From: Bacteroidales bacterium
GTDB taxonomy: Bacteria; Bacteroidota; Bacteroidia; Bacteroidales; UBA932
Reading direction: 5' to 3'
Length of the DNA stretch: 49,464 nt
NCBI GenBank assembly: GCA_017651465.1
Contig: JAGCCX010000008.1
Coordinates: 1 to 49,464, forward strand
Made by a program: the position numbers and the translations under genes. A model generated the notes under the pieces. It was not told the origin of the DNA and did not search any database. It worked only from the letters and a program-made list of their open reading frames with translations. Positions 10,320 through 46,397 of the stretch are shown here, piece after piece; the stretch's first letter is position 1, and every line of letters starts with the position of its first letter.

Positions 10320-11549
10320 TTAATAGTTGACCTTTTCGAAGCCGGGGTGATTCTCGTTGGTGAAGGGAATGCAGTAAGCGGTATAGACGGCGATGGAGCC
10401 GGGAGTCCTTATGCCTTCATCGATTTCGGAATAGAACCACTCTTCAAACTCGGCTTGACGGTCACCCCTCACCCCGTACATTACGCTGGAAGCCTTGCCT
10501 GCATAAGAGCCTGAAGGATAGTTACGATAAGTGGGATGGTTGCAGTCGCCGGGGAAAAAGACGTATTGGGCTTCGGACCTCGGAAACATATCGAGGCATC
10601 TGAAGATGATCTTGGCACCGACTATCTCCGTTGCACCGATGTAGTGATTATATCCCGGACGGGTGGTTGCAAAGCCTTCGAATCCCTCGGTCTCGGATAC
10701 GCTGGCACTGGTCCATAAAGACAGGCCGGGGAATACTTTACGCTGGGTAGCATCGATGATTTTCTTCTTCTGGCCGTTGAACGACTCGTCGCCGCAGAGA
10801 GTGATATAATCTTGAATGACGCGGTAGTCTAAAACATCGGCATATCCCGAGGGAATGCCGTAATCGGACAAATCGTAGTGCTTGTTGGGAAGCCAGGGCC
10901 CCCAGGTCTCATCGTCGTGGAGATAATGGAAGTCGTGACCGCGTCCCGCCGCCATATGCACCATCCATCCCGGCATACTCCCGTCAACTTCGCTGACAAC
11001 GATATAGTGATGCCCGTCAGCATCCTTGAATACCTCTCCGAATTTGTAGATCGATTCATCGCCGGCGTTCTCGCCTATCTGGTCGTTGGTCTTGTAGCTG
11101 ATCTTTTCGAGATGGGGAATGCAGGGAATATCTACATCTACGTATCCCACATTTGCGCCGCCGGGAGCACGGTGGAAAGTGAGTTTTCCGAACTTGCTGC
11201 CGGTAAGGTCCAGTACCAGGCCGTCGGATGTCCCTTCGATAAGCCCGACACCGCCGCCGGCAAGCGAGCAGAAACTGTTTTCGCTGTATATGGCGGAACG
11301 CACCTTTACGCTGCGTTCATTGGGATTGGAGTCATCGCGCACTACACCGTAAACTGGCTCGAAGGTCTTGCCCTGGAAGGGGATGTCCTTTGTGATGTCG
11401 AAATCCTGTCCTGCGAGCGTGGCGAGGACAGTGGCTATGGCGTTACGCTCCTGAACTTTCTTGTCGTCGGAGCCTTCGGGGCCGGTCTTGTTGCAAGAGA
11501 GTGCAACTGCCAGGAGGCAAATACCCAAAATGAACGGATGATTATTCAT
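10320..11549 (-). CDS. Short-class RFGDV lipoprotein (array gene 17, last)
   Basis: 409 residues from the ATG at 11549. 55 extra upstream codons are rejected because they lack a signal and run into the preceding gene. Signal ends at Cys19 (VALSC). The body follows the short-class pattern: GKTFEPVYG (60-68), RDDSNP (71-76), a GxLxFxRxPxGxNVGYxxVDIPCIPHLxxI block (121-150) and YKFGEVFKDADG (168-179), a variant of the RFGDV motif. After residue 190 it diverges from the other short-class members; its C-terminal half is unlike anything else here and ends in an ENHPGFEKVNY tail. Function unknown. It follows the preceding long-class gene by 31 bases. Confidence 0.82.
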   Translation of the reverse strand: MNNHPFILGICLLAVALSCNKTGPEGSDDKKVQERNAIATVLATLAGQDFDITKDIPFQGKTFEPVYGVVRDDSNPNERSVKVRSAIYSENSFCSLAGGGVGLIEGTSDGLVLDLTGSKFGKLTFHRAPGGANVGYVDVDIPCIPHLEKISYKTNDQIGENAGDESIYKFGEVFKDADGHHYIVVSEVDGSMPGWMVHMAAGRGHDFHYLHDDETWGPWLPNKHYDLSDYGIPSGYADVLDYRVIQDYITLCGDESFNGQKKKIIDATQRKVFPGLSLWTSASVSETEGFEGFATTRPGYNHYIGATEIVGAKIIFRCLDMFPRSEAQYVFFPGDCNHPTYRNYPSGSYAGKASSVMYGVRGDRQAEFEEWFYSEIDEGIRTPGSIAVYTAYCIPFTNENHPGFEKVNY

Positions 11550-11580
11550 AATACGGTATATACGGTGAAATTGTTGACGA

Positions 11581-43806: not shown

Positions 43807-43817
43807 ATCTTGATTAT

Positions 43818-46397
43818 CTATTCGTTTTCTTTCAATTCACTCCAGCTGGGCATATGGTACAACTCTCCGTTGAGGAACATATCAACGTCGACGCTGTCCC
43901 AGATAAAGACGGTGTAATCCTTGACCTCGTCGTAGGAACTGTCCCTGCTGCCGCCGAAGCTCCAGTTGCGCTCCTTGACAAGTGTGAGAGTGTGTCCGTC
44001 GGTGGTGGTGGTAGAGTAGTTGGTGTCTCCACGGTCCATCACACGGGCATAGCGGAACAGCAGGATGGGCTCGTACCACATATCTGTGAAGGTGGTCCAG
44101 TCGGTCTTGTTGTTCCAGTTGCTCATCCGGTAGAAATAGTATGAGATATCCCTTGAGGAAAAGTCGGGAATGGAGCGGGGGGTACGGGGGGTCGATTCAT
44201 CCGAGTTGGGGTCTGAGACCTTGGCAAGCGGACATACCACGTAGTAGTCCTTGGCATAAGTCTCGACCATATTGCTCTTTGCAAGATCCTGAAGGTGGAT
44301 GAGCGTGTTGGAGAACTGGGTGACTTTGGGCGTGGTAGTGTCCGGATTGGACGGGTACCGGGTCCAGAAGAAATACTTCGGCTGATTGTCGTTCTCCAGT
44401 TTGGTGTTGATGACGCAGCGCAGCAGGGGCTGCTCCACATCGCCGGCGCCCGGGCGGTAGGCGATGCTGCAGGCGATGGAACTGTTGCGGTTGGGCATAA
44501 AGATCATCTGCATCAGTTTCCGGGGATCCACGCTTGCGGCTTCGATCAGGTTGGCGGTGGTGTAGCCGAAGGTTATGTTGGTGTTCAAGTGGTCTTCTTC
44601 CATAAGGTGCGTCCTGTTGTAGAGAAGCTGCAGGAACATAAATGCGCGGATAGCCTGGTCACGCGTGGGAAGGTTGGTAATCCTCTGGTTGGAAGACGGT
44701 TCGCTGGGGATGTCAAAGCCCACGTTGTCAAACGAAACGAGCTCCGAGTAAGGAGAACGCTCATTCCTCTTGGTGTATTCGCCGCCTTCCATCCCGGTAT
44801 CATAACCGGCCTGGTTGATGACGAACCATTTGGCTCCCTTCTCGTCTTTGTAAACGTCGCCCCAGCGATAATGGGCACGGCCTACGTAACCGTCGCCGGT
44901 GGCCTCGGTAATTTCGGGCTTGTCGTTATCGTACGAGCCTTTTTCAAACTCATTGTAATAACGGTAAACTTGCTGGAAGCCCGGAAGGGCGAAGCGTGCA
45001 TCCCACTTGCCTCCGCCGATCTTTGCAAGCTGCTCTCCCGTGGCGTAACGGTAGATGAAGCGGGGCTCCTTGTCGCCGAAGAACTTCTCGTTGATGACAA
45101 AAGGCCTCTCGGGGGAGCACTCGGTCTTTACGTTGAAGGGGATATTGGTGGCCGGATCGGTCGTATTGCCCGGATTCGTAACTTGCTTGGTCACGGTCTT
45201 ATTCTCCACCGAGTGCATATTCAGCTGCGTATGGTCGTCGGTAATCACAGATTTGTAGGTGGCCTGATATAAATCGAGGTCGTTGCTGAACCAGGTCCAC
45301 CAGGAGTAGCCGGTGTGGAGATAACGCAAGCCCTGGCCGCCGTTCTGCACGCGGGATGATACCCAGGCCTGGTCGTGCTTTACACCGCCTTCTTCCGATC
45401 CCAGGAGGGTGTTGAACAGGTCGTGTGAGATCCAGGCCTTTTTGACGTTCTGCCAGAAGAAGTCGTTGTGATACTGGAGATTCTCCTTGGTGAAGTCGTT
45501 GAAGATAAGGAGGCCGTCGGCGCCGAACCAGCCCTCGTGGTAATAATTGTTGGCATTCGTGTACCAGTTGCCGAAGTTCTGGGGGTTGGCTCCGGCAGTG
45601 ATGATGGCGTAGAACATCTCGTTGAGGTCCTGGAGCCACTCCAGGTCGTCGCCGAGGTTGTAGGGGCATCCGTACCCGTTGCCGTTGCTGCCGGGGTAAG
45701 GTCCGTAGTTGTAATCGTCACTGTAATACGGCCACACGTTCTCGCGGGGCAGGGGGCTCAGGCTCACCCAGTGGCTCTCGCCCTTGCCCTCGGGATGGAA
45801 GGCCGGACGCACGCACACCCAGTATTCGGTAATGGCAGGGAACTCCACATCGCCCTTCTTGTCGGCGGGACGGGTGCGGGAGATTACATCGCCGAAGCGG
45901 TAGTAGGCACGGATTCCTCCCTCCACTCCGCCGTTGGTGTCTCCCTGCTCGGGGGAACGGTATATGATTCTGGTAAGGGAAGGTACCGACGGAAGGGCAA
46001 GGTCGGCCGTGCCCCAGGCGGTGGTGCCGTCGCCTTTGTTCCAGGTGATGGATCCAACTTCGCTGTTGCTCCAGGTATATGATGGGGTGTTGACGTCTAT
46101 GTTGGCTCCGGTCAGGCCGTTGAAGCGGTCCACGGCGGCCCGGAGGCTGTTGACGGATACCACACGCACTCCGGGCTCTGTTTCTTCACCAATGATGGGG
46201 GAGAAGGTCTTGCCCTTGTAGTCGGGGGTCATCTGGTCCATACCGACGATCTTTCCCACCACGTTCCAGAATACTTGGTCGGCGGAGAGTTTCTGGTGGC
46301 CGTCGGGACCAAGAGGAGCAGGCTCATAGTCCTTGGTGCAGGCCACAAGGCCGGCGCAAAGAACAAGCGAGATACTTAAAAAGAAACGATGTTTCAT
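43818..46397 (-). CDS. Long-class RFGDV lipoprotein, first gene of the array (array gene 1)
   Basis: 859 residues, lipidation Cys20 (GLVACTKD). Motifs in order: FWNVVGKIVG (43-52), DYKGKTFSPIIG (59-70), GTADLALPSVPSLTRIIYR (129-147), YYRFGDV (165-171), YWVCVRPAFHPEGKGESHW (192-210), GYSWWTWF (363-370), FFGDKEPRFIYRYATG (439-454), a second RWGDVYKDEKGAKWFV (511-526), and a beta-type end with EPILLFRYARVMDRG and PSWSELKENE. Two deviations from siblings: the loop before RFGDV is GGVEGGIR instead of SVGDNGS, and the GNGGFEP segment is replaced by NEFEKGSYD. A good promoter lies upstream. The fold is unknown to me. The GDV...W.CV unit loosely recalls small carbohydrate-binding modules. Confidence 0.87.
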   Translation of the reverse strand: MKHRFFLSISLVLCAGLVACTKDYEPAPLGPDGHQKLSADQVFWNVVGKIVGMDQMTPDYKGKTFSPIIGEETEPGVRVVSVNSLRAAVDRFNGLTGANIDVNTPSYTWSNSEVGSITWNKGDGTTAWGTADLALPSVPSLTRIIYRSPEQGDTNGGVEGGIRAYYRFGDVISRTRPADKKGDVEFPAITEYWVCVRPAFHPEGKGESHWVSLSPLPRENVWPYYSDDYNYGPYPGSNGNGYGCPYNLGDDLEWLQDLNEMFYAIITAGANPQNFGNWYTNANNYYHEGWFGADGLLIFNDFTKENLQYHNDFFWQNVKKAWISHDLFNTLLGSEEGGVKHDQAWVSSRVQNGGQGLRYLHTGYSWWTWFSNDLDLYQATYKSVITDDHTQLNMHSVENKTVTKQVTNPGNTTDPATNIPFNVKTECSPERPFVINEKFFGDKEPRFIYRYATGEQLAKIGGGKWDARFALPGFQQVYRYYNEFEKGSYDNDKPEITEATGDGYVGRAHYRWGDVYKDEKGAKWFVINQAGYDTGMEGGEYTKRNERSPYSELVSFDNVGFDIPSEPSSNQRITNLPTRDQAIRAFMFLQLLYNRTHLMEEDHLNTNITFGYTTANLIEAASVDPRKLMQMIFMPNRNSSIACSIAYRPGAGDVEQPLLRCVINTKLENDNQPKYFFWTRYPSNPDTTTPKVTQFSNTLIHLQDLAKSNMVETYAKDYYVVCPLAKVSDPNSDESTPRTPRSIPDFSSRDISYYFYRMSNWNNKTDWTTFTDMWYEPILLFRYARVMDRGDTNYSTTTTDGHTLTLVKERNWSFGGSRDSSYDEVKDYTVFIWDSVDVDMFLNGELYHMPSWSELKENE

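What the first reader, a model, noticed from the sequence alone, without database searches (positions are those of the whole stretch)
10320..46397. Seventeen-gene surface lipoprotein array combining three MACPF proteins, a C13 protease fusion, a BMP-like binder and twelve members of an unrecognised paralogous family
Seen: every gene from 46397 to 10320 lies on one strand, each with a lipobox signal. Thirteen are packed with gaps of 21 bases or less, or overlaps. Known: Bacteroidetes MACPF toxins (BSAP type) are usually described as single genes. I know of no described system with this composition. Inferred: a multi-part surface machine for attacking or sensing other cells, with pore formers and accessory shell or recognition proteins made from one transcript. 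The absence of SusC/SusD genes argues against a polysaccharide-use locus.
Basis: partly seen in the sequence, partly recalled or inferred. Interest (0 to 1): 0.92.

Follow-up and report, generated by a model that had tools for sequence, protein, structure and literature searches.

The report
Multi-part bacterial surface pore-forming array
Some bacteria, many of them from the stomachs of goats, deer, yak and buffalo, carry a conserved set of surface genes that combines three pore-forming proteins, a sensor-protease fusion and a family of look-alike proteins with differing tips, which may be a multi-part weapon against other cells.

Summary
In detail: 17 same-strand lipoprotein genes, 13 packed end to end, with three MACPF proteins (one marginal in Pfam), a receptor-domain/C13-protease fusion, a BMP/PnrA-fold binder and twelve members of one family without a Pfam match ("RF"). 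It is conserved: a genome scan found RF in 31 other Bacteroidales assemblies (13 titles name a source, each a ruminant). Of the 31, 30 match the C13 fusion (11 of 393 in an order sample) and 27 MACPF (24 of 393). In 16 of 31 all six parts share a contig, nine in the order RF, MACPF-15, MACPF-7, short RF, MACPF-11, BMP-like, C13. New here: long RF proteins have a conserved N-terminal half and a divergent C-terminal half; two MACPF classes share an Asn in the BACON-MACPF linker, a candidate protease site; clusters of MACPF genes with the C13 fusion but no RF exist in other families; the island is patchy within its genus. Best reading: a multi-component, protease-activated pore-forming system with a recognition repertoire; function untested. 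Against one fixed system: the C13 fusion, mostly with its BMP-like neighbour, also occurs without MACPF, and RF genes occur on contigs without either.

The parts
43818..46397 (-). G1, long RF lipoprotein
41233..43806 (-). G2, long RF lipoprotein
38678..41230 (-). G3, long RF lipoprotein
36056..38656 (-). G4, long RF lipoprotein
33546..36050 (-). G5, long RF lipoprotein
31101..33542 (-). G6, long RF lipoprotein (folded, pLDDT 85.6)
28669..31095 (-). G7, MACPF lipoprotein of class M7, BACON-like N-terminal domain below Pfam cut-off, conserved linker Asn
27435..28667 (-). G8, short RF lipoprotein
25315..27426 (-). G9, short RF lipoprotein with a C-terminal repeat region (weak Chlam_PMP match); start moved to fit the lipobox
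23132..25318 (-). G10, short RF lipoprotein with a C-terminal repeat region (weak Chlam_PMP match)
21387..23126 (-). G11, MACPF lipoprotein of class M11
20336..21394 (-). G12, lipoprotein with BMP/PnrA-type binding fold (B)
18057..20333 (-). G13, receptor-type binding domain fused to a C13 (legumain-type) protease (C); His614 and Cys660 kept
17996..18029 (-). promoter-like site before G14 (Bacteroides-type pattern, recalled)
15838..17952 (-). G14, long RF lipoprotein
14092..15807 (-). G15, divergent MACPF lipoprotein of class M15, BACON-like N-terminal domain below Pfam cut-off, conserved linker Asn
11581..14085 (-). G16, long RF lipoprotein
10320..11549 (-). G17, short RF lipoprotein; start moved to fit the lipobox
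46439..46447 (-). promoter-like -7 element upstream of G1 (weak: such elements are expected about 7 times in the window, 14 found)

Best explanation
A surface-displayed, multi-component MACPF pore-forming system. Three non-identical MACPF lipoproteins (classes M15, M7, M11) are encoded together and probably act in one mixed complex. The binding-domain/C13 fusion (C), with the PnrA-fold binder (B) beside it, is a ligand-responsive, probably Asn-specific protease that activates MACPF proteins by cutting between the lipid-anchored BACON domain and the MACPF domain. RF lipoproteins share a conserved half that docks to the complex or surface and carry divergent tips that recognise different targets. 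Shown: gene set, co-occurrence and order, domains, conserved catalytic residues, constant/variable pattern, conserved Asn. Inferred: surface display, assembly, cleavage, triggering, killing.
For: Of 31 RF assemblies, 30 match the C13 fusion and 27 MACPF, against 11 and 24 of 393 in an order sample. All six classes share a contig in 16 of 31. In the order sample the four genomes with neighbouring MACPF genes are the only 4 of the 24 MACPF genomes with a C13-fusion match (Fisher p 9e-5, or 6e-4 without the window's genome). Two of these four have no RF match: L142 has three MACPF genes beside C, L143 has MACPF genes, B and C. Catalytic His and Cys kept in 46 of 47 C proteins over 600 aa. Linker Asn in 12 of 12 M7-type and 13 of 14 M15-type proteins. 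Constant/variable split in the window and in 26 of 29 same-locus pairs elsewhere. Published precedent for MACPF/CDC-like lipoproteins as antibacterial pore formers and for proteolytic activation (PMC12853789, PMC11169675, PMC9308784; parts read).
Against: No function is measured for any part. C, mostly with B, occurs without MACPF nearby at nine loci (L144-L148, L151-L154), so C may have other substrates. RF occurs on contigs without MACPF or C13, and some RF proteins stop after the constant half (about 480 aa). Two of the 30 C13 matches (G200, G224) are divergent members only, 30-37% identical. M11 has no BACON match and no invariant linker Asn. An Asn in a linker is common by chance; only its conservation is notable, and my control MACPF proteins mostly lack a comparable N-terminal domain. 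M15 is a divergent MACPF. The RF assemblies and the order sample differ in habitat and lineage, so the p-values are descriptive.
Confidence: 0.45

Rival explanations
1. Adhesion or capture layer: the lipoproteins form a coat that binds plant fibre, mucus or cells, and the MACPF proteins are non-lytic structural or binding parts. The C13 protease sheds or remodels the coat.
For: BACON-like domains, many lipoproteins with divergent tips, repeat-bearing G9 and G10, ruminant hosts in the 13 titles that name a source. PMC4999547 reports MACPF proteins tested without antimicrobial activity (passages).
Against: Three separate MACPF classes kept together with a protease in 16 of 31 assemblies on one contig is more than a coat needs. 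No SusC/SusD among the 17.
Confidence: 0.2
2. Same pore-forming system, but RF proteins are shields or immunity proteins: the constant half binds the cell's own or incoming MACPF proteins and blocks them, and the divergent halves track different attackers.
For: A CDCL producer is protected by a surface lipoprotein encoded in the toxin operon (PMC11169675, passages). RF is amplified next to MACPF genes, and RF occurs on contigs without MACPF.
Against: Two genomes have neighbouring MACPF genes plus C13 without an RF match. The conserved half, not the divergent half, would have to bind a shared partner. No binding data.
Confidence: 0.18
3. Two separate modules that travel together on an accessory island: a B/C sensor-protease module and an RF/MACPF module without functional coupling.
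For: B/C without MACPF at nine loci and RF without C on some contigs. The island is patchy in the genus (4 of 61), and a congener has other genes at the same site.
Against: The association is found in several families and with MACPF genes of other types (L142, L143, L155, L156), and B/C follow the MACPF block in 15 of the 16 full contigs.
Confidence: 0.12

Closest known systems
BSAPs (Bacteroidales secreted antimicrobial proteins)
   Same: Lipoproteins with a MACPF domain; some have an N-terminal BACON domain and a C-terminal receptor-binding region (PMC12853789: abstract, passages and section 9 seen; PMC4999547: passages)
   Different: The BSAPs in those passages act as single toxin genes. 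Here three MACPF classes sit in one conserved cluster with a C13 fusion, a BMP-fold binder and RF proteins. Antibacterial activity is untested here.
Two-component CDCL toxins of Bacteroidota
   Same: Different pore-former genes side by side, MAC-like mechanism, proteolytic activation, surface lipoprotein in the operon (PMC11169675, passages)
   Different: The activating protease there is of type C11, identified on sensitive cells. Here a C13 protease is encoded in the cluster itself, the pore formers match MACPF, and there are many more lipoproteins.
BcpT and Fab1, activated by C11 proteases
   Same: A surface cysteine protease activates a Bacteroidales toxin (PMC9308784 passages; PMC8406203 abstract)
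   Different: Other protease family; BcpT is cut after Arg, while a C13 enzyme is expected to cut after Asn (recalled from legumain).
PnrA/BMP binding proteins
   Same: Predicted fold of G12
   Different: No BMP sequence match in Pfam; ligand unknown
Legumain and GPI transamidase (peptidase C13)
   Same: Domain and catalytic residues
   Different: Fused to a receptor-type binding domain in a predicted bacterial lipoprotein

Membership tests
BSAP-type MACPF toxins | MACPF domain (PF01823) | tested here: met
   G7 32.3, G11 31.2, G15 22.2 bits, cut-off 21.5. G15 is marginal: 7 of 14 of its class match MACPF at E up to 1; hhalign to the G7 class 96.9%.
BSAP-type MACPF toxins | lipoprotein signal | tested here: met
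   lipobox in G7, G11 and G15
BSAP-type MACPF toxins | surface export signal after the Cys | tested here: inconclusive
   K/R then D/E at +3/+4 in 11 of the 17 proteins, read by eye; export not shown
BSAP-type MACPF toxins | kills related bacteria through a receptor | not testable with these tools
   needs a bench assay
CDCL two-component toxins | CDCL-type pore-forming domain | tested here: inconclusive
   Pfam gives MACPF; the G15-class profile weakly touches CDC structure 3hvn (E 0.0034) and MACPF-type 6fbm (E 0.0042)
CDCL two-component toxins | activation by a C11 protease | not tested
   the cluster carries a C13 protease; C11 genes elsewhere in the genome were not sought
Peptidase C13 | Pfam profile and catalytic His/Cys | tested here: met
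   E 1.5e-43; both residues kept in 46 of 47 C proteins over 600 aa, shorter ones left out
BMP/PnrA binding proteins (G12) | BMP-type binding-protein fold | tested here: met
BMP/PnrA binding proteins (G12) | Pfam BMP sequence profile | tested here: not met
   no BMP family among hits at E up to 1 for 10 members
Polysaccharide utilisation locus | SusC/SusD pair | tested here: not met
   no such match among the 17 proteins
Known anti-phage defence systems | match in PADLOC-DB | tested here: inconclusive
   no match at E up to 0.01 for the 10 of 17 proteins given

The most novel reading that the evidence does not exclude
A bacterial counterpart of complement: a standing surface machine in which a small-molecule-gated legumain-type protease, perhaps sensing nucleosides or other metabolites spilled from damaged cells, converts several different MACPF proteins into one attack complex, aimed by a constant/variable repertoire of RF recognition proteins.
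Probability: 0.25. Interest if true: 0.95.

Novelty: new variant of a known kind. Interest (0 to 1): 0.8.

Why it matters
The MACPF toxins of Bacteroidales that I could read about act as single receptor-specific genes. A conserved multi-MACPF cluster with its own receptor-protease fusion and a constant/variable lipoprotein repertoire would mean that bacteria also build composite, triggerable attack complexes. It makes two questions directly testable: whether bacterial MACPF proteins form mixed complexes, and whether a producer-encoded C13 protease activates them. RF is also a sizeable protein family without a Pfam match and without a clear whole-chain PDB fold match.

Tried and rejected
Rejected or unsupported: polysaccharide-use locus (no SusC/SusD); known anti-phage defence (no PADLOC match for the 10 proteins given); viral origin (17 pattern matches in viral contigs, none confirmed); sequence homology of G12 with G13's binding domain (hhalign 19.5%).

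Full report
OBSERVATION. Seventeen minus-strand genes run from 46397 to 10320. All 17 have a lipobox-type signal; G9 and G17 need starts at 27426 and 11549. The first thirteen are packed with gaps of 21 bases or less, or small overlaps. A promoter-like site lies in the 104-base gap before G14 and a weaker one upstream of G1, so I expect two transcripts. As a yardstick, my simple lipobox rule (later starts allowed) fired in 98 of 306 unclassified complete ORFs of at least 200 aa around related loci, but in 131 of 134 long RF, 28 of 29 short RF, 24 of 24 M15, 31 of 32 M7, 23 of 23 M11, 30 of 30 B and 43 of 45 C proteins (some loci overlap, so some genes count twice).

RF ANATOMY. In the window the long RF proteins are conserved from about residue 30 to 470 and then diverge: G2/G3 are 92, 86 and 97% identical in the three N-terminal bins and 41 and 21% in the two C-terminal bins; G14/G16 82, 71, 67 and then 20 and 20%. 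Elsewhere the N-terminal part is the more similar in 26 of 29 same-locus pairs in which an anchor motif was found in both proteins; the three exceptions lie in L012, L034 and L179, of which the last two overlap and repeat one pair. RF proteins of about 480 aa that stop after the constant half exist. The model of G6 is confident (pLDDT 85.6), but the whole chain has no clear PDB match.

CONSERVATION. A scan of one genome for each of 84,980 species returned 46 RF loci in 31 assemblies. Thirteen titles name a source, each a ruminant. Of the 31, 30 match G13 (two of them, G200 and G224, only through divergent members) and 27 match MACPF. One of the four without a Pfam match (G227) still has an M15-type gene by sequence (L049). 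In 393 genomes of the order G13 matches in 11 (four weak, E 1e-4 to 8e-4), MACPF in 24 (21 over the cut-off) and RF in 3 (one weak). Fisher tests are; the groups differ in habitat and lineage, so they are descriptive. All six classes share one contig in 16 of 31 assemblies (G199, 202, 203, 204, 206, 207, 210, 211, 212, 214, 217, 218, 222, 223, 225, 226); several of these are close relatives. The order is M15-M7-r-M11-B-C in nine (G202, 204, 206, 207, 211, 214, 217, 218, 222), M15-M11-M7-r-B-C in five (G199, 210, 212, 223, 225; two r in three of them), M15-M7-M11-r-B-C in G226, and in G203 B and C lie upstream. The window is rearranged: RF(6)-M7-r(3)-M11-B-C-RF-M15-RF-r.

CORE WITHOUT RF. G516 (L142) has three MACPF lipoproteins with BACON-like domains beside the C13 fusion; G336 (L143) has MACPF genes, a B-like gene and C. 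Both belong to other families and have no RF match. In the order sample the only genomes with neighbouring MACPF genes are G000, G336, G516 and G551, and these are the only 4 of the 24 MACPF genomes with a C13-fusion match. A further kind of locus has five or six MACPF-like lipoproteins in a row, some only weakly matched (L150, L157, L158, L160, L161). Against one fixed system, C, in most cases with a B-like gene, occurs without MACPF nearby at L144-L148 and L151-L154; L148 is a second locus of the window's own genome.

CANDIDATE ACTIVATION SITE. Between BACON and MACPF an Asn is present at one aligned place in 12 of 12 M7-type and 13 of 14 M15-type proteins. MACPF proteins linked to C13 in L142 (3 of 3), L143 (1), L155 (1) and L156 (1) also have an Asn in this linker. 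Legumain-type proteases cut after Asn (recalled). This is a hypothesis: the control set did not test it, M11 lacks the feature, and four proteins of the larger arrays do not clearly show it.

MOBILITY. In 61 genomes of the genus RF occurs in 4. In one of them, G653, only an M7 frame without a signal peptide, a short RF and M11 were seen, with no C13 match in the genome; the same two genes follow downstream as in G621. In G639, whose flanking proteins are the most similar to the window's among the 61 (90-91%), the stretch between the same flanking genes, next to the same tRNA-Ser, holds a different block of about 25 kb, and no RF match was found in that genome. The island is therefore accessory. 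In the C-protein tree G13 groups with proteins of G211, G212 and G216 (99/97), whose titles read Bacteroidaceae, Prevotella and Bacteroidales; this fits transfer but was not tested against a species tree.

LITERATURE. Nine searches of an open-licence library found no description of this set; most subscription papers are not held. Nearest are BSAPs (PMC12853789: abstract, passages, section 9; PMC4999547: passages), two-component CDCLs (PMC11169675: passages), BcpT (PMC9308784: passages) and Fab1 (PMC8406203: abstract).

VERDICT. The weapon reading is the best supported but not shown. The additions are the conserved gene order, the MACPF-C13 core in other families, the constant/variable RF architecture and the linker Asn as a testable activation site.

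Noticed in passing
L150, L157, L158, L160, L161: Arrays of five or six MACPF-like lipoproteins in a row, including small ones of 358-515 aa (several only weakly matched or unmatched), followed by large proteins; two of these in L150 have GLUG motifs. L161 has B and C just upstream.
   Followed up: partly
L148 (own genome, contig C84), L144-L147, L151-L154: C13 fusion, mostly beside a BMP-like gene, without MACPF nearby; in L148 and L152 beside other lipoproteins, three of which had no Pfam match.
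   Followed up: partly
L228 (G653): Apparent remnant of the cluster: an M7 frame without signal peptide, a short RF and M11, with the same downstream genes as in G621.
   Followed up: yes
L208 and L209 (G639), next to tRNA-Ser: At the window's island site this congener has a different block of about 25 kb with large secreted and lipoprotein genes: a variable site.
   Followed up: partly
window 23132-27426: G9 and G10 carry C-terminal glycine-rich repeats (weak Chlam_PMP matches), perhaps a beta-helix, after the short RF domain.
   Followed up: no
L013 564-2738, L017 604-2778, L053 4505-6679: A second, divergent C13 fusion lies directly upstream of B and C.
   Followed up: no
window 1819-4675: Carbamoyltransferase, amino acid kinase and DDAH/arginine-deiminase-like genes in a row, suggesting arginine metabolism.
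   Followed up: no
G212 (L034, L038, L159, L178-L180): One Prevotella assembly has C13-fusion matches on six contigs and MACPF matches on three of them.
   Followed up: no
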